A stretch of 46,403 bases of DNA from a virus. Shown here piece by piece: positions 3,401-44,275 of this stretch. The position numbers and the translations under genes were made by a program. The stretch is taken from IMG/VR virus record IMGVR_UViG_3300030109_003718, positions 1 to 46,403 of that record; one strand, given 5' to 3'. How positions within the stretch are numbered: position 1 is the stretch's first letter; the number at the start of each line of letters is the position of its first letter. The notes beneath the pieces were generated by a model, which had not been told where the DNA came from, made no database searches, and saw nothing but the letters and a program-made list of their open reading frames with translations.

Positions 3401-3609
3401 ATTTATTTGATATATGCATGGAGGTGCTAGAGCATGCCCATGATTTAGAGATGAACATATCTGATGAAAAATGTCGTGAAATTGTAGCAACTGAGATATA
3501 TGATTTGTTTTATGAATACCAAGCATATCCTCAACCTTACGATATGAGTCATGTAGGAGACATAAAAGAATATTGGGAATATAGAAGAGATTTTGATGAA
3601 GACGAGTAA
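3397..3609 (+). CDS. Small acidic protein, 70 aa
   Basis: The protein is 70 residues long and strongly acidic, ending in DFDEDE. It starts at a TTG (3397) that overlaps the TGA of the small terminase gene. It contains many Tyr and Glu residues (EIYDLFYEYQ, EYWEYR) and no recognised domain. Being wedged between the terminase subunits with overlaps on both sides, it is probably translated by coupling. An in-frame ATG exists at residue 8 and cannot be excluded as the start. Confidence 0.6.
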   Translation: MNLFDICMEVLEHAHDLEMNISDEKCREIVATEIYDLFYEYQAYPQPYDMSHVGDIKEYWEYRRDFDEDE

Positions 3610-3967
3610 GTTGGCGGTATATGGAACATTGAGAAACGGAGAAAGAGACTTGTGGAATGTTAATGGATTTTCTTTGGTATTTCCGGGTCATAGGCATTAT
3701 CCAGCCGCAATGCACGATAGAAAAGCTAAAAATATGAAAGTTGAAGTAATAGATGTTGACGACGCTGATATTGCCAATTATGATATATATGAAAGTATTA
3801 GTACTGGTTTATATGAGCGAAGAAAAGTCAAAGTGCATAATAAATACGAGACTATTGATGCTTGGATGTATACTATTGGAGCCGCATTGCTTCAAGGTAC
3901 AAAAGTATTTGAAATGGTTCCAAAGCAAGATTGGTTATCAGAAGAATGCCAAAGCCTAAAAAAATAA
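3596..3967 (+). CDS. Gamma-glutamylcyclotransferase-like (AIG2/GGCT fold) protein
   Basis: From ATG 3596 the protein is 123 residues. It begins with the family's substrate-binding loop YGTLR (residues 9-13) and carries IYE-x(4)-GLYER (64-74), where Glu66 matches the catalytic glutamate of gamma-glutamylcyclotransferases. Family members cleave gamma-glutamyl amines or peptides, releasing 5-oxoproline, and act in the cytoplasm. A TTG three bases upstream is an alternative start. It lies between the terminase genes, overlapping both neighbours, which is an odd place for this enzyme. The amidoligase cassette elsewhere in the genome makes a linked role in an amide or gamma-glutamyl modification plausible (inference). 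Confidence 0.8.
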   Translation: MKTSKLAVYGTLRNGERDLWNVNGFSLVFPGHRHYPAAMHDRKAKNMKVEVIDVDDADIANYDIYESISTGLYERRKVKVHNKYETIDAWMYTIGAALLQGTKVFEMVPKQDWLSEECQSLKK

Positions 3968-38199: not shown

Positions 38200-38395
38200 A
38201 CTTCACCTCCACAACTTTACTATTTCTATTCGACCTTCTATTCATATTGTTGCAATAGTCATATACTTCTTCTTCATCATCCCATAACCTATGAGGGTAC
38301 TTTTCATTTATTACATTACTAAAAGCACCACCCCTTATTATCCACCAATCAGTACCATCTTTTTCTTCTTTAATTGTCCATTTGTTTTTAAGCAT
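38171..38395 (-). CDS. Hypothetical protein, 74 aa
   Basis: The 74-residue protein has many aromatic residues (TDWWIIRGGAFSNVI) and an acidic helix (LWDDEEEVYDYCNN). No domain is recognised. It lies directly downstream of the Cas4-like nuclease gene, overlapping it by eight bases. Confidence 0.5.
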   Translation of the reverse strand: MLKNKWTIKEEKDGTDWWIIRGGAFSNVINEKYPHRLWDDEEEVYDYCNNMNRRSNRNSKVVEVKFGYGTKEVI

Positions 38396-39278
38396 TTATC
38401 TCTCCTTTTGTTTTGTTATACGGACACACTTCTCTTACAGAACAGTATGATTCACACTTAATACCGTTCCAAGTTTCTTCTTTTGTACAAACCTCTGGAA
38501 GTTCTTTACTTGCTAATGCTTTCAAGAGAGCTTCTTTTTTCTGTGAATATCTATTAATTAGATGTTCGTTATCTATATAAGGAATATCTATCATATATAT
38601 CTTCTTTTCTATTCCACGCTCTCTAGCTATTTGCAATCCAGCATCTCTTACTGTAGCTTGTATAAACATTTTATCTACTGGGTAACCATTATTCTCTAAT
38701 AAGTATCTATAGAAATTCAACTGCCATCCCCAATCTTCTAAATCGGCAGTGTTTTTATCTATATAAAACTCTTTTATTCTTTTAGGTGTTCCCGCTTTTC
38801 CCCAACGACCACTTCTTTTATATCTCTCAGTAGGGTGTTGTACATATTTAAATTGTACACCTAAACACTTAGCTATTTTATAAGAGCCGGAAAATTTGTA
38901 GTCTACAAGCGTTCTAGTCTCTTTGTCGTACAAATCTACTGTACCTGTAATACCTAAATGTTCTAGTGTTAGTTCTGATTCTAGTCTGTCTAATCCTTCT
39001 GAAGATTCTTCTAACTTTAGATGGTGTAATGTACCAGCTAAAGAGAAAGCATTATCTTCTGGATATATATAGTAGTCAGTTGTTCTCTCTAGGTACGACT
39101 GACAAGTACCATTTAATAACTCTGTAGTGGACGGTTTTCTATTTGGTGGTCTATCTTTTGACATATGTAGTAGTGTTGGGAGAGATACTCCCATTCTACC
39201 TACATCTACGTTTCCTCTCTTCACTTTTTCTAGAAGAACCTTCTCACCATCAGAGTATTTAAAACCTCTTAACGGCAT
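38388..39278 (-). CDS. Cas4/AddB-like PD-(D/E)XK nuclease with iron-sulfur cysteines
   Basis: The 296-residue protein has His85 in the AGTLHHLKLE segment, Asp115 in GTVDLYD and the D-x-K pair in VDYKFSGS (Asp126, Lys128). The C-terminus has Cys264, Cys275, Cys279 and Cys285, and Cys59 lies near the N-terminus, so an Fe-S cluster as in Cas4 and AddB is likely. It would resect DNA ends to give the Rad52-type protein a substrate. It is the first gene after the promoter at 39304-39333, with an AAAGGGAG site. There is no CRISPR array, so a Cas4 adaptation role is unlikely. Confidence 0.8.
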   Translation of the reverse strand: MPLRGFKYSDGEKVLLEKVKRGNVDVGRMGVSLPTLLHMSKDRPPNRKPSTTELLNGTCQSYLERTTDYYIYPEDNAFSLAGTLHHLKLEESSEGLDRLESELTLEHLGITGTVDLYDKETRTLVDYKFSGSYKIAKCLGVQFKYVQHPTERYKRSGRWGKAGTPKRIKEFYIDKNTADLEDWGWQLNFYRYLLENNGYPVDKMFIQATVRDAGLQIARERGIEKKIYMIDIPYIDNEHLINRYSQKKEALLKALASKELPEVCTKEETWNGIKCESYCSVREVCPYNKTKGEINA

Positions 39279-39358: not shown

Positions 39359-40501
39359 TTATTGTGCAAACTTTGCTATTCTTTTATTCATATAACTAGC
39401 TAACTTCTTACCAAACACTTCTAATATTTTATGTTCTGCTGAAACATTAAACCATTTAAAAGTATCTTCTCTTCCTAGCTTACTTAACTCTATACCTTTT
39501 TCTACTATTGCATTACATATACTTATCCAGTTAAGTATTTTAGTTTTATTAAGAGTTCCTGAGTGTAGTCTAAATTCTAGTGAGCCGTGATAATATCTAC
39601 TATGTATATTAAGACCGCTATATCTAGCATCATTGTATTTATCTACTGAAGGAGAACACTCCATAGACTCATAATAGAGGTTTACCAATTCTTCTTCTGT
39701 ATCAATACTTATTAGTACATCAAACATCATATTAAAATCTTTACACCAGTTAGAGTCTTGCCTAGATTTTGGCATCATAGATTTTAATATCTCTTGAAAA
39801 TAACTATAAACCATACCAACTCTAGCCACTTCTTTAGCTGACATATCAGTAGAATCTATATGTATATGCAAACCACAGCTTCTATTAACATCTGCATAGA
39901 ATATGTTTTTCCAATTAATTAGATTATCTACTGCATCGACTATAAAGTCTCCACTTAAAGGAACTGATACTAGTTCTGTTGCAGAGTATCCTTCTACGTC
40001 TGAAGATATAGAACCATCTGATACGTTGTTCCAGTGCATAGGTGTCCAAAACTCTTCTCCATCTTCGTAGATACATTCTGCTTCTATACCAACAAGCCTC
40101 TTAACTTTGTAATTAAAATTACTACATTTTATAGAAGTACTTGGAGGTGTATTGTTTTCAATACGCTCTACTAAATGCTCTGATGAATCTGGAGCACAAC
40201 AATGGCAATATAAATAGTCGCCTACACATATAGTTTCTTCTCTCTCTACTGCTTCTCCACAACTCTCACAATAGGTAAAGTAATCATAGAAACAATGCTC
40301 ACAGTAGGCATTATCATGTGCCCAATATATATAGTCATCATGTACTTTGTCATCACAATTTTGACACGTAGAGTAGTTGTCCGATACACAAGTTTCACAT
40401 ACATTATGCATAGTAGAAAAGTTATTTACAGTTAGTGTTTCACCACAACATTCACAAGTTCTAGTATCTACATCTTTTCTAGTTCGTGTTCTTTGTGGCA
40501 T
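39359..40501 (-). CDS. Amidoligase (GS-fold) with cysteine-rich N-terminus, 380 aa
   Basis: The first 105 residues hold about 14 cysteines in LIM-like CxxC pairs (16/19, 35/38, 46/49, 67/70, 78/81 and 99/102), so several zinc sites are likely. The remaining domain shows the motifs of the putative amidoligase family (Amidoligase_2, glutamine-synthetase fold): GIEAE (138-142), DGS (162-164) with Glu176, CGLHIH (209-214), Arg293 and Asn298, then EFR (309-311) and GT (315-316). Such enzymes use ATP to join a carboxylate to an amine. This gene ends the cassette, before the promoter of the recombination operon. Confidence 0.85.
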   Translation of the reverse strand: MPQRTRTRKDVDTRTCECCGETLTVNNFSTMHNVCETCVSDNYSTCQNCDDKVHDDYIYWAHDNAYCEHCFYDYFTYCESCGEAVEREETICVGDYLYCHCCAPDSSEHLVERIENNTPPSTSIKCSNFNYKVKRLVGIEAECIYEDGEEFWTPMHWNNVSDGSISSDVEGYSATELVSVPLSGDFIVDAVDNLINWKNIFYADVNRSCGLHIHIDSTDMSAKEVARVGMVYSYFQEILKSMMPKSRQDSNWCKDFNMMFDVLISIDTEEELVNLYYESMECSPSVDKYNDARYSGLNIHSRYYHGSLEFRLHSGTLNKTKILNWISICNAIVEKGIELSKLGREDTFKWFNVSAEHKILEVFGKKLASYMNKRIAKFAQ

Positions 40502-40502
40502 A

Positions 40503-40817
40503 TCAGACTCCTATATTTGTAGCTTGTATAAAACCTACTACAAAAGCATTTACCACCTTCAACCATTTTATCTTTTTTAAAGCATCGTACAATTTATGTT
40601 CTACTTGCCCGGATTCTATATCTACATCTATAGAACCTAGTTGTTTTATTTGTTTATGCAGAAACTCTAAGTATTCTTCGTAGGAAGTATTTGCTAGAAA
40701 AGGATTTTTCTTAGCTTTTTCATATAACTTCTCAATTACGTATTTCTTAGACTTTAATTTAATAGGATTAGGAAATCCTATTAAGATTACCTTCTTAGAA
40801 GGGGCAGGAATCTTCAT
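40503..40817 (-). CDS. Hypothetical protein within the amidoligase cassette, 104 aa
   Basis: The 104-residue protein is basic and helical (KKYVIEKLYEKAKKNPFLANTS, then LEFLHKQIKQL) with a hydrophobic end (VVNAFVVGFIQATNIGV). No family is recognised. It overlaps the amidotransferase end by 23 bases and ends one base before the second amidoligase gene. Its location makes it a candidate substrate, carrier or assembly factor of the cassette (inference). Confidence 0.6.
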   Translation of the reverse strand: MKIPAPSKKVILIGFPNPIKLKSKKYVIEKLYEKAKKNPFLANTSYEEYLEFLHKQIKQLGSIDVDIESGQVEHKLYDALKKIKWLKVVNAFVVGFIQATNIGV

Positions 40818-41838
40818 CTGTTTTATCTCCTATGTCGTTTTCTATTATTGGGAAATACTCGCAGTCAAAACAGACTCTCTTATGATTAGCGTCTGTCCAT
40901 ATTTCATCTACTGAAACCCACTCGTAGCAATACGAACACATCTCTTTTGATGCTGTTGTATTAGTAGAACCCAATAGAGATTTAGTAGCAGGACTAGGTT
41001 TGTAATTTCTATAACCATTGTAGCCATAGTAATGGTAGTCGCCCCAACCACTAAATGTTTGTCTAGTATTGCCATAAATATTTCTACTTACAGTATTATA
41101 CTGGCTTATCGTATTGAAAGCCTCTTCTAGTCTATTAGGTCTACCATCAAACTTATCTACGTCATACGTATAGATATAATCTTCTGGTATTTTACTAACA
41201 GGTAGAACTAATCCAGCCCTAGTCATTGCATCTAGAAGTATATCTTTAGTAGATGCCCAAAACAAGGTTCTAGCTTTTTTCCAATAAGCTACCACCATAG
41301 GTCTGCCAGACTCTCTAGCTAGATGTATCTTTTTATTACTATCTTTTACCCAAGTAATAGCAAAATCTCCATCTATATTTTCAAAAGCCTCTGTTTGCTT
41401 ATTTTTATTTAAGGATTGGAATAGAACTTGCGAATCTACTTCTGGACTATTCTTACCTAGTTGTTTTGCTACTTCATTGTAATTGTAGATAATACCATTG
41501 TGAGCACCAGTTACTTCACCTATATTAAATGGGTGAGCATTATGCACTTTTATAGAACCTTGTGTAGCTAGTCTAACATGTCCTATAACAATAGTAGTAT
41601 CTCTTGTGATTTTAGATAGAATATCTTTATCCCAACTGTCTGAATCTACTAGAGCTGAAGAATCTAGAAGAGTTTTATAGGTATATCTATTATCTGTATC
41701 TATAATAGAAAAACCTGTACTATCCGTACCACGAATAGATGACTCATCTGTTACTTCTGTAAATACTCTTTTAAGAATATCTAGTTGGTTATCTGATTGT
41801 CTACCATCGGCTTTAGCAAAGCCAAAGATACCACACAT
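40795..41838 (-). CDS. Class II glutamine amidotransferase with C-terminal zinc ribbon, 347 aa
   Basis: The protein starts MCGIFGFA, so Cys2 is the N-terminal nucleophile once Met is removed. It has RGTDSTG (36-42), Arg89 in HVRLATQ, Asn114-Gly115 in AHNGI and Asp135, the glutamine-binding set known from GlmS and PurF. It is shorter than those enzymes and lacks their synthase domains. Instead it ends with a zinc ribbon (EMCSYCYEW and CFDCEYF). It would release ammonia or an acyl group from glutamine for the neighbouring amidoligases. It starts 11 bases after the large amidoligase gene. Confidence 0.88.
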   Translation of the reverse strand: MCGIFGFAKADGRQSDNQLDILKRVFTEVTDESSIRGTDSTGFSIIDTDNRYTYKTLLDSSALVDSDSWDKDILSKITRDTTIVIGHVRLATQGSIKVHNAHPFNIGEVTGAHNGIIYNYNEVAKQLGKNSPEVDSQVLFQSLNKNKQTEAFENIDGDFAITWVKDSNKKIHLARESGRPMVVAYWKKARTLFWASTKDILLDAMTRAGLVLPVSKIPEDYIYTYDVDKFDGRPNRLEEAFNTISQYNTVSRNIYGNTRQTFSGWGDYHYYGYNGYRNYKPSPATKSLLGSTNTTASKEMCSYCYEWVSVDEIWTDANHKRVCFDCEYFPIIENDIGDKTDEDSCPF

Positions 41839-41849
41839 TTATTTCTCCT

Positions 41850-43691
41850 TTATTGTTTGTTACTTATTCTATTTTCTATATATTCAACACCCCAATTTCC
41901 TGCCATATCTCTTATTACGTCTATAGGTTGAATCTTGTTAGAAATTATCTTATTATATAATGTATTATTATTAACTAATGTAGTAGATGTTTTCATTATT
42001 CTATTTAAAAACCTTATCCAATTTTTTATAGGTTCAGAGTATATAGTACCTTCGTGGTATCTAAACTCTATTGTTCCTAGAAAAAATCTAGCGTGTAAAT
42101 TTGTTCCTATGTATCTTCCTTCATTGTATTTTTCATCTGTTATACTGGTATCTGCTAATTGATAATACCTATTTACTAGAGTAGGTAAATCCTCTATTTT
42201 TTGTAGTTCATTTATAGACCAAGATAGCTCTCTACAATACGTATGCTCTCTTTCTGTTGGTAAAGTATCGTAAATAGAATCTTGAATCTTAGTCATAATC
42301 ATTAATAGTGATTTTAATTCTATAAAATTAAAGTCTATAGCGTTCATATGTATATGTACACCACAGCTAGAATCTACGCTATTGTATTCGTCAAGATTAA
42401 CAGTTTCTAAGGAATAGAGAGCTTCGTCTACTTGCTTCCCTATTATTGGCTTAGACGTCTTAAACTCTACGCCACCTCCATTTAGAGAGCCATCATCTAC
42501 TACCATAAAATGTTTAGGTATATACCCATCGTCTATATAATGGTCTGCACTATCATAATTAGATATTACTTCACTTTCTATTCCTACAAATCTATTAAAT
42601 TCACTTTTAGTACCATATTTAGTAGGTATACGTAATCCTCTAAATGGATTATATAGATGTTGATTCAAGGACTGGGTAGCACAAGGATTACAATACGTAG
42701 TAGAAAATACCGTACTAAAATTTTTGTTATTAGCTTTAAAATGTAATAGATAATCACTTTTATCAGGGTATCTTCTAAGTCTATCAAAGTCTATATATTC
42801 TATTGTTTTACATCTACAGCAAGATAGATAGAAACTATCTATACATTTCCTACAACATTTATTTATTTCTGCATCTTCTAGTATATCTTTCCTATTGTCG
42901 TTTCTAAGTCTTAAACTTTCTATATCTACATTGTAGCTTATAAAATTACCTTCATCACATACATCACAAGAAACTTTATAATTGTTATAGCAATCTAAAC
43001 ATACTTTATAATCTAGAAACTTTTTTAAGTCACTATCAATATCTATAAAATCACAATGTCTACAGGAGTTATATATAGATTTTTGGTTTCTATTTGCATA
43101 GCGAAATAAGAAAGGTAACATTCTACTCATTACTTTATGCAGATAGAATCTATTTTGGCGATTATATGTTAATCTAAAATCGTTTTTATCTACAAATTCA
43201 CCTTTTCTCCATATACGCTGAACTGCTCTATGAACTGGAGTATTAATAAATGTTCTATTAGCTAGATAATGTTCTATACTATCAGTTGAGTCTCTACTCA
43301 GTTCTTCACTCCCTAATATAGTTAATACGATATCTTCTTGAACACTGCTAGAGCTAGGACGTCTTTTATAGGTAAAATTTAATAGATTTTTGCTCATATA
43401 TAGTAAGTCACTAGCTTTACAAACAATCTTTATAGATGGATTATCTACAGACTGTATTAATACACCTAGAGGATTTCTAGTAATATTAAGATTTCTTAAA
43501 CTATATTCTTTTATATCTATTATTTTAAATAGACGCTTTTTAACAGTATCATTAGATAAGTAATCTGTGTCAATAGTATTAGATATATCATAGACACCAT
43601 CTAAACTCATATCTACATCTGCAAATGTAGTAAAATTAGTATATCTAGCATTACAGGGATTATATAATATGACCTCATTTGAATATAGCAT
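41850..43691 (-). CDS. Large amidoligase with cysteine-rich region, 613 aa
   Basis: Residues 1-205 are unrecognised. Residues 210-340 carry CxxC pairs (210/213, 231/234, 242/245, 280/283, 291/294 and 334/337), a zinc-binding block. The C-terminal domain repeats the amidoligase motif series: GIESE (370-374), DDGS (399-402) with Glu409, CGVHIH (443-448), Arg526 and Asn531, EFR (542-544) and GT (548-549). It is a diverged paralogue of the 380-residue amidoligase. Long N-terminal fusion suggests a scaffold or substrate-binding role. It is the first gene of the cassette in transcription order. Confidence 0.85.
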   Translation of the reverse strand: MLYSNEVILYNPCNARYTNFTTFADVDMSLDGVYDISNTIDTDYLSNDTVKKRLFKIIDIKEYSLRNLNITRNPLGVLIQSVDNPSIKIVCKASDLLYMSKNLLNFTYKRRPSSSSVQEDIVLTILGSEELSRDSTDSIEHYLANRTFINTPVHRAVQRIWRKGEFVDKNDFRLTYNRQNRFYLHKVMSRMLPFLFRYANRNQKSIYNSCRHCDFIDIDSDLKKFLDYKVCLDCYNNYKVSCDVCDEGNFISYNVDIESLRLRNDNRKDILEDAEINKCCRKCIDSFYLSCCRCKTIEYIDFDRLRRYPDKSDYLLHFKANNKNFSTVFSTTYCNPCATQSLNQHLYNPFRGLRIPTKYGTKSEFNRFVGIESEVISNYDSADHYIDDGYIPKHFMVVDDGSLNGGGVEFKTSKPIIGKQVDEALYSLETVNLDEYNSVDSSCGVHIHMNAIDFNFIELKSLLMIMTKIQDSIYDTLPTEREHTYCRELSWSINELQKIEDLPTLVNRYYQLADTSITDEKYNEGRYIGTNLHARFFLGTIEFRYHEGTIYSEPIKNWIRFLNRIMKTSTTLVNNNTLYNKIISNKIQPIDVIRDMAGNWGVEYIENRISNKQ

Positions 43692-43855: not shown

Positions 43856-44275
43856 CTAGACTGCCCAATAGTACTCCATATCTATTGGTTCTTTCCATTT
43901 GTACTTAGAGTAATACTCTAAGTCTTTACGTAGTAGGTTACTTCTATGAGAAGCGTGTACTCTATTATCACCTAACCAAGGAGGCATCTCTATAGAATCT
44001 GGCAAACCTACAAGTTCCATTGTATTATTGAAATTTCTAAGTATCCATTCTTCTATCATTTTGTTTTTATAGAGTAACAACGCTTCTACATAACCATCCC
44101 ACATTAGAACGGCAGGATGTCTTAACCAACCTTTGTAGGGTTTACCTTTCTTGGTAAGATTACCTACTAATACATTGTATATCTGTAATGCTTCTACTCT
44201 CTGCTTACCTAGTCTTTTATCATCTAGTATACTAGCAGAGATAGAGAAATCTTTATGTGGTAGAAATGTTTGCAT
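43856..44275 (-). CDS. Pyrimidine-dimer DNA glycosylase family protein
   Basis: The 139-residue protein has the family pattern MQTFLPHKDF, then LDDKRLGKQRVEALQI, RHPAVLMWDGYVEALLLY, PPWLGD and HASHRSNLLRK. These match the Pyr_excise family (T4 endonuclease V relatives), which remove UV-induced pyrimidine dimers by glycosylase and AP-lyase action. It would protect phage DNA from sunlight damage, fitting a surface-water host. Length fits the family. Confidence 0.85.
   Translation of the reverse strand: MQTFLPHKDFSISASILDDKRLGKQRVEALQIYNVLVGNLTKKGKPYKGWLRHPAVLMWDGYVEALLLYKNKMIEEWILRNFNNTMELVGLPDSIEMPPWLGDNRVHASHRSNLLRKDLEYYSKYKWKEPIDMEYYWAV

What the first reader, a model, noticed from the sequence alone, without database searches (positions are those of the whole stretch)
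39359..43691. Phage amidoligase cassette: two cysteine-rich GS-fold amidoligases around a zinc-ribbon glutamine amidotransferase
Seen: two amidoligase paralogues (613 and 380 aa) with the full motif series (GIExE, DGS, CG[LV]HIH, EFR, GT), both fused to N-terminal CxxC arrays, flank a class II amidotransferase with its own C-terminal zinc ribbon and a small unknown protein. All are in one leftward unit with 1-23 base overlaps or gaps. Known: amidoligases of the glutamine-synthetase fold form amide bonds, and class II amidotransferases give ammonia or glutamyl groups. Inference: they form one complex that modifies a protein, metabolite or base; shared zinc modules may dock the parts or bind the target. 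No peptide or base substrate is visible, so the product is open.
Basis: partly seen in the sequence, partly recalled or inferred. Interest (0 to 1): 0.88.

Follow-up and report, generated by a model that had tools for sequence, protein, structure and literature searches.

The report
Slimmed phage amide-ligase gene cassette
A virus of bacteria carries four side-by-side genes (two related amide-bond-forming enzymes, a glutamine-splitting enzyme and a small helper) plus a distant fifth partner, and together they look like a trimmed, zinc-decorated version of an already described but still untested phage gene set thought to chemically alter the host cell.

Summary
In detail: four leftward genes at 39359-43691 encode two PF12224 amidoligases, a class II glutamine amidotransferase (GAT) and a small protein. 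Active sites are invariant in about 50 relatives. The A613 model matches YbdK, glutamine synthetase and glutamate-cysteine ligase. Gene order holds in 53 of 59 S104-anchored loci.

The kind is known: a 'peptidoglycan modification cassette' has been described, without assay that I found, in phiEco32, LUZ24, RIO-1 and others (PMC5498523, PMC10580990). Two classical members, PF14395 and ATP-grasp, are absent while positive controls hit.

New points: amidoligases duplicated inside this phage group and fused to LIM-like zinc arrays; a graded series GAT-AS, GAT-S-AS, AL-GAT-S-AS; fast-evolving zinc parts beside conserved cores; the same zinc-amidoligase+GAT pair in integrative elements of Ruminococcus and in Omnitrophota.

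Docking through shared zinc modules is not supported. Best reading: glutamine-fed gamma-glutamyl/amide ligation on a host macromolecule; target unknown. New variant of a known kind.

The parts
41850..43691 (-). A613 (AL): amidoligase PF12224 with fast-evolving N-terminal part (1-205), central CxxC array (210-337), GS/GCS-fold catalytic domain (about 366-600)
40795..41838 (-). GAT: stand-alone class II glutamine amidotransferase (Cys2 nucleophile) with a C-terminal CxxC...CxxC ribbon (301-326)
40503..40817 (-). S104: small, probably helical protein with hydrophobic C-terminal stretch; never seen apart from the cassette; strongly constrained
39359..40501 (-). A380 (AS): amidoligase PF12224 with N-terminal LIM-like CxxC array (16-102) and GS/GCS-fold catalytic domain (about 134-334)
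3593..3967 (+). GGACT/AIG2-like gamma-glutamyl cyclotransferase, between terminase small- and large-subunit genes; fifth activity of the known cassette, displaced (start codon uncertain, TTG/ATG)
38388..39278 (-). Conserved downstream PDDEXK (exonuclease-like) gene; marks the 3' border of the cassette and used as a cassette-blind anchor

Best explanation
This is a reduced, zinc-fused variant of the phage 'peptidoglycan modification' cassette (amidoligase + class II amidotransferase + gamma-glutamyl cyclotransferase). Mechanism (inferred): GAT hydrolyses glutamine through Cys2, giving glutamate and/or ammonia. The two GS/GCS-fold ligases use ATP to activate a carboxylate (most likely the gamma-carboxylate of glutamate, as in YbdK and glutamate-cysteine ligase) and join it to an amine on a host macromolecule. 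The variable zinc arrays (and the A613 N-terminal part) select the target. GGACT, encoded with the packaging genes, can cleave gamma-glutamyl amines as 5-oxoproline and so trim, reverse or recycle the modification. The target most often proposed is a cell-wall peptide precursor, which would alter the surface and exclude competing phages; an intracellular protein is nearly as likely. Shown here: gene content, folds, intact active sites, linkage, conservation. Inferred: chemistry, order of steps, target, benefit. Confidence: amide/gamma-glutamyl ligation about 0.6; cell-wall target about 0.3.
For: Families, folds and intact catalytic residues of both ligases and GAT. GGACT in the window and 29/29 relatives tested. 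Over 50,697 phage records the genus counts for GGACT (278 records: Pseudomonas 105, Escherichia 93, Aeromonas 11, Proteus 8, Cronobacter 6, Pseudoalteromonas 5) closely mirror those for GAT (329 records: 121, 92, 11, 8, 6, 5). Classical cassettes keep GAT, PF12224 and GGCT near each other. In the cassette-blind scan all 62 informative loci keep an amidoligase and 61 also the GAT. Zinc parts and the A613 N-terminus diverge 1.7-1.8 times as fast as the catalytic cores of the same proteins, GAT C-terminus 2.7 times, as expected if they select targets.
Against: No member of the cassette kind has a demonstrated product that I could find. PF14395 and ATP-grasp, two of the three ligases of the classical cassette, are missing, so the product must differ from the classical one. 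GGACT is not in the same transcription unit and could serve another purpose; genus-level agreement is not record-level co-occurrence. Zinc arrays are not in the classical amidoligases examined. No dN/dS above 1, so relaxed constraint explains the fast parts as well as target selection. No adjacent GGACT was identified beside the Ruminococcus and Omnitrophota pairs.
Confidence: 0.5

Rival explanations
1. Counter-defence or host-takeover protein modification: the ligases attach glutamyl or other amide groups to a host protein (defence effector, RNA polymerase, ribosomal protein); zinc arrays recognise the protein. The cell wall is not involved.
For: Cytoplasmic enzymes with protein/nucleic-acid-binding type zinc arrays that diverge fast; cassette lies on the replication side of the genome; the same pair is cargo of integrative elements and lies near a CBASS-like pair in Omnitrophota.
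Against: No PADLOC hit; no dN/dS above 1; no target identified; no anti-defence report found in the papers searched.
Confidence: 0.27
2. Pupylation-like tagging: S104 is the tag, one GS-fold paralogue prepares it and the other ligates it to targets.
For: Two GS-fold paralogues plus a small conserved protein that is never found apart from them.
Against: S104 C-termini vary (NIGV, NIGG, YGIA, TAIS, KNIT) and never end in Gln/Glu; one-ligase relatives with S and one-ligase relatives without S exist; a glutaminase is part of the core.
Confidence: 0.06
3. DNA base hypermodification: the ligases add amino-acid groups to phage bases.
For: Next to replication/recombination-type genes; zinc arrays could bind DNA.
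Against: No base hydroxymethylase, pyrophosphorylase, kinase or glycosyltransferase family was found among the window proteins scanned; not every small ORF was scanned; the pair also sits in integrated elements with ordinary DNA replication.
Confidence: 0.05
4. Auxiliary nitrogen/amino-acid metabolism: the enzymes recycle host glutamine and peptides for the phage.
For: Proposed for Phage-ZRK32, which carries GAT, amidoligase, a glutathione-synthase-like gene and GGCT (PMC10945688).
Against: Variable zinc arrays and duplicated ligases are unexpected for central metabolism; hosts normally have their own enzymes; the growth effect in that paper was not tied to these genes.
Confidence: 0.07

Closest known systems
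Phage 'peptidoglycan modification cassette' (Iyer et al. 2009 and Hardies et al. 2013 as cited in PMC5498523 and PMC10580990): RIO-1, PSA-HP1, phiEco32, 7-11, PA11, tf, LUZ24, PaP3, CW02; also UFV-P2 (PMC3890496)
   Same: PF12224 amidoligase with the same motif series, stand-alone class II GAT, GGACT/GGCT in the genome; unit among replication-side genes
   Different: No PF14395 ligase and no ATP-grasp; two PF12224 paralogues fused to zinc arrays; S104; GGACT moved to the terminase region. The amidoligase tree sets classical members apart (99/95)
Zinc-array amidoligase + GAT pair of other elements: podovirus ctgrD200 (MW202733), Ruminococcus/Butyricicoccus integrative elements, Omnitrophota (L067, L068)
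   Same: CxxC-array amidoligase directly followed by a class II GAT
   Different: Amidoligase before GAT; mostly a single amidoligase; no S104; GAT ribbon kept in Omnitrophota but not in the Ruminococcus copies read; no neighbouring GGACT identified
Clostridial prophages with two amidoligases followed by GGCT (C. clostridioforme phi13, PMC11318856; Terrisporobacter TPDSL_ph1, PMC11253131)
   Same: Two amidoligases (PHROG 2443 in the former) with a GGCT
   Different: GGCT adjacent; no GAT named in those passages; sequences not compared here
YbdK / glutamate-cysteine ligase and glutamine synthetase (fold)
   Same: Best solved-structure matches of the A613 model
   Different: About 11% identity; extra N-terminal region and zinc array; substrate unknown
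Pup-PafA-Dop pupylation (from general knowledge)
   Same: Two GS-fold paralogues and a small protein
   Different: S104 lacks a GGQ/GGE end; GAT present; one ligase suffices in relatives

Membership tests
Amidoligase_2 (PF12224) | score above curated cut-off and intact GxExE / DGS / HxH / E(F)R motifs | tested here: met
   80.8 and 79.0 bits against cut-off 22; residues invariant in 51 relatives each
GS/GCS-fold ligase | structural match to solved GS/GCS ligases | tested here: met
   A613 model (pLDDT 88.4) against 1tt4/1r8g E 8e-5 and 6e-4, prob 1.00; TM-scores low (0.25 by query, 0.40 by target), partly because the query has about 360 extra residues
Class II glutamine amidotransferase | Cys after Met1 plus glutamine-pocket residues (R, N-G, D) | tested here: met
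   C2, R89, T92, N114, G115, D135 invariant in 54 and aligned with classical phage GATs
Phage peptidoglycan modification cassette | PF12224 amidoligase in one unit with a class II GAT | tested here: met
Phage peptidoglycan modification cassette | gamma-glutamyl cyclotransferase (GGACT/AIG2) in the cassette | tested here: inconclusive
   present in the genome and in 29/29 relatives, but about 36 kb away in the other transcription unit
Phage peptidoglycan modification cassette | second, different amidoligase PF14395 (COOH-NH2_lig) | tested here: not met
   no hit in the window, 14 window-lineage and 12 sister-lineage contigs; hits in 5 of 5 classical phages, one of them below the curated cut-off
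Phage peptidoglycan modification cassette | ATP-grasp ligase | tested here: not met
   profile A6: no hit in 21 contigs including the window; three classical positive controls at E below 1e-110
Phage peptidoglycan modification cassette | modifies peptidoglycan / excludes superinfection | not testable with these tools
   only a prediction in the literature found
LIM-type zinc domain | tandem CxxC-x16-20-CxxC pairs binding zinc | tested here: inconclusive
   spacing and periodicity fit; one BFVD match is named 'LIM domain containing protein'; no Pfam LIM hit; metal binding not testable
Pup-PafA-Dop | small tag ending in GGQ/GGE | tested here: not met
   S104 C-termini NIGV, NIGG, YGIA, TAIS etc.
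Known anti-phage defence system (PADLOC 2.0) | model hit | tested here: not met
   no hit for any of the four window proteins

The most novel reading that the evidence does not exclude
The zinc-array amidoligase + class II GAT pair is a cross-element weapon carried by phages, integrative elements and conjugative islands, whose fast-diverging zinc arrays pick host or rival targets for amide/gamma-glutamyl modification, with S104 and a duplicated ligase as later additions in this phage group: a new enzymatic counter-defence or exclusion system rather than a cell-wall decoration set.
Probability: 0.18. Interest if true: 0.78.

Novelty: new variant of a known kind. Interest (0 to 1): 0.42.

Why it matters
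Hundreds of sequenced phages (329 records with a related GAT, 278 with GGACT) carry genes of this kind, yet no substrate or product was found in the papers searched. The variant here is naturally stripped: it lacks PF14395 and ATP-grasp, and its sister phages have only one amidoligase, GAT and GGACT. That defines a minimal two-to-three-enzyme core that could be purified and assayed, which makes the old prediction of gamma-glutamyl/cell-wall modification easier to test. The same pair in integrative elements suggests the function is not only a matter of the phage lytic cycle.

Tried and rejected
Zinc modules as docking parts: not supported as a general rule. GAT ribbon homologous to the amidoligase array: best real score (18.1) does not exceed cysteine-preserving shuffles (max 18.8), so undecided. 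Positive selection: no region with dN/dS above 1. Amidoligase-GAT gene fusion: none; the one double hit (L040 GAT) matches the array profile in its CxxC stretch, 277-342. Pup-like tag: wrong C-termini. S104 fold: model too weak to search. Sequence relatives in the PDB: none for the amidoligases, weak GlmS/PurF hits for GAT. RNA elements: no Rfam hit. Promoter/terminator scan no better than shuffles. A single-sequence scan with A613 found nothing in viral contigs, probably because that protein is too variable. Host not identified: no close relative in the genome collection or among phage records. Iyer et al. 2009 is not in the library, and Hardies et al. 2013 was not looked up; both are known here only through papers that cite them.
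Full report
OBSERVATION. Both ligases pass the PF12224 cut-off by more than 55 bits and GAT passes GATase_6. S104 has no convincing family. The cysteine array of A613 is central (210-337), not N-terminal. The window is a virus record of 46,403 bases with a P22-like portal, an SU10-type capsid protein, terminases and DnaB, and no near-identity relative among 50,697 phage records (bases 20000-44999).

CONSERVATION. A GAT scan of viral contigs gave 56 loci at 29-75% identity; most keep the order AL-GAT-S-AS followed by a PDDEXK nuclease. A scan with S104 alone gave 61 loci; of the 59 tallied, 53 are AL-GAT-S-AS and the others GAT-S-AS or S-AS. A scan with the neighbouring PDDEXK nuclease, blind to the cassette, gave 62 loci with at least 3.5 kb upstream: 32 AL-GAT-S-AS, 29 GAT-AS, one AS, none empty. 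An intermediate GAT-S-AS form exists, with one PF12224 gene in the whole contig (several of these contigs are fragments). So GAT plus one amidoligase is the core, and S and AL look like additions. The tree agrees: AL is one clade (97/98), and AL, AS and the sister AS form one cluster (88/89), apart from classical phage and Ruminococcus members. The AL/AS duplication therefore appears to have happened inside this phage group.

ENZYMES. Both ligases keep the whole motif series invariant (A613 E372, E374, D400, S402, E409, H446, H448, R481, N531, R535, E542, R544; A380 the equivalents), so neither looks like a dead paralogue. The A613 model (pLDDT 88.4) matches YbdK-type carboxylate-amine ligase, glutamine synthetases and plant glutamate-cysteine ligase, and phage amidoligases. 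GAT keeps C2, R89, T92, N114-G115 and D135, aligned with the GATs of phiEco32-like and Zobellviridae phages, and has no synthetase domain, so it presumably needs a partner. S104 is helical in a low-confidence model (pLDDT 63.5), has a hydrophobic C-terminal stretch across the family, and is among the most constrained of the parts (dN/dS 0-0.17 in most pairs, 0.36 in one).

THE MISSED PARTNER. A gamma-glutamyl cyclotransferase (PF06094, E 6.7e-14) lies at 3593-3967 (+) between the terminase genes, with the YGTLR motif and the Glu column shared with cassette GGCTs. It is in the window, 14/14 window-lineage and 15/15 sister-lineage contigs tested. Among phage records the GGACT and GAT genus counts mirror each other. 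This points to gamma-glutamyl amides as product or intermediate. Genus-level counts are not record-level proof.

PRIOR ART. PMC5498523 describes a seven-gene 'peptidoglycan modification cassette' (gamma-glutamyl amidoligase, second amidoligase, ATP-grasp, GGCT, GAT) in RIO-1-like phages, phiEco32, 7-11, PA11, tf, MR299-2, LUZ24, PaP3 and CW02; PMC3890496 lists the same set in UFV-P2. PMC10580990, PMC11318856 and PMC11253131 repeat the surface-modification or superinfection-exclusion idea, citing Iyer et al. 2009; that paper was not available here. None of the passages read reports a product.

DIFFERENCES. PF14395 and the ATP-grasp enzyme are absent from the window and its relatives, while classical phages serve as positive controls. 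The zinc arrays are not in the classical amidoligases examined but are in podovirus ctgrD200, whose next gene is an unannotated GAT, and in cellular elements. In the genome collection the array-amidoligase + GAT pair recurs in Ruminococcus, Butyricicoccus and other Clostridia, often several copies per genome, near integrases, resolvases, a relaxase and DUF960, and in Omnitrophota beside TraG and a DncV-like nucleotidyltransferase + patatin pair.

ZINC PARTS. The arrays of A613 and A380 are similar to each other (hhalign probability about 92%); the GAT ribbon is not demonstrably so. In close pairs the non-catalytic parts differ far more than the cores (A613 N-part 0.64, A613 array 0.64, A380 array 0.59, GAT C-terminus 0.50, against 0.36, 0.35 and 0.18 for the cores), with dN/dS up to 0.83 but never above 1. 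They do not co-diverge beyond the general rate (partial r at most 0.21). This fits target selection or relaxed constraint better than mutual docking.

MECHANISM. Most likely: glutamine hydrolysis by GAT feeds ATP-dependent amide formation by the two ligases on a host macromolecule chosen by the zinc parts; GGACT removes or recycles gamma-glutamyl groups. The place of GGACT among packaging genes suggests later expression than the cassette, but transcription was not measured. Target: cell-wall precursor (literature prediction), protein, or a defence component; the data do not decide. Rivals (pupylation-like tagging, DNA base modification, nitrogen metabolism) are less likely for the reasons listed with them.

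VERDICT. Real, conserved, with intact active sites, and a new variant of a known but, as far as found here, unassayed kind. Its interest lies in the minimal core it reveals, the link to gamma-glutamyl chemistry in this genome, and the occurrence of the pair in other mobile elements.

Noticed in passing
window 3593-3967 (+): Gamma-glutamyl cyclotransferase gene between the terminase subunit genes, conserved in all 29 relatives tested; the fifth activity of the known cassette, displaced.
   Followed up: yes
L069-L073, L075-L076, L078-L131 (Ruminococcus, Butyricicoccus and other Clostridia): Array-amidoligase + GAT pairs in many integrative elements, several per genome, with a DUF960 protein upstream (43 loci) and integrase/resolvase nearby; function unknown.
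   Followed up: partly
L073:5820-5999, L078:5814-5987, L094:5794-5988, L126:5833-5997: Small ORFs of 54-64 aa, at least two of them with a hydrophobic stretch, between amidoligase and GAT in some Ruminococcus-type elements; no Pfam family for the two tested; possible peptide substrate or analogue of S104.
   Followed up: no
L067:4666-11196 (Omnitrophota MAG): Amidoligase-GAT pair close to a DncV-like nucleotidyltransferase + patatin (CBASS-like) pair and a TraG-type coupling protein.
   Followed up: no
L358:3488-4402 (MW202733, ctgrD200): Hypothetical protein next to the annotated amidoligase is a class II GAT (GATase_4 E 3e-6).
   Followed up: yes
window 43856-44275 (-): Pyrimidine dimer DNA glycosylase (PF03013 E 3.8e-21) just upstream of the cassette, kept in many relatives.
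   Followed up: no
L342:5034-5306: Sister-lineage phage contig carries an ORF that reads like a GroES co-chaperonin near the cassette (judged by eye only).
   Followed up: no
OK172329 (Alcaligenes phage QDWS535) 35654-36472 (-): The ATP-grasp match of its cassette runs through one in-frame TGA: broken gene, sequencing error or recoding.
   Followed up: no
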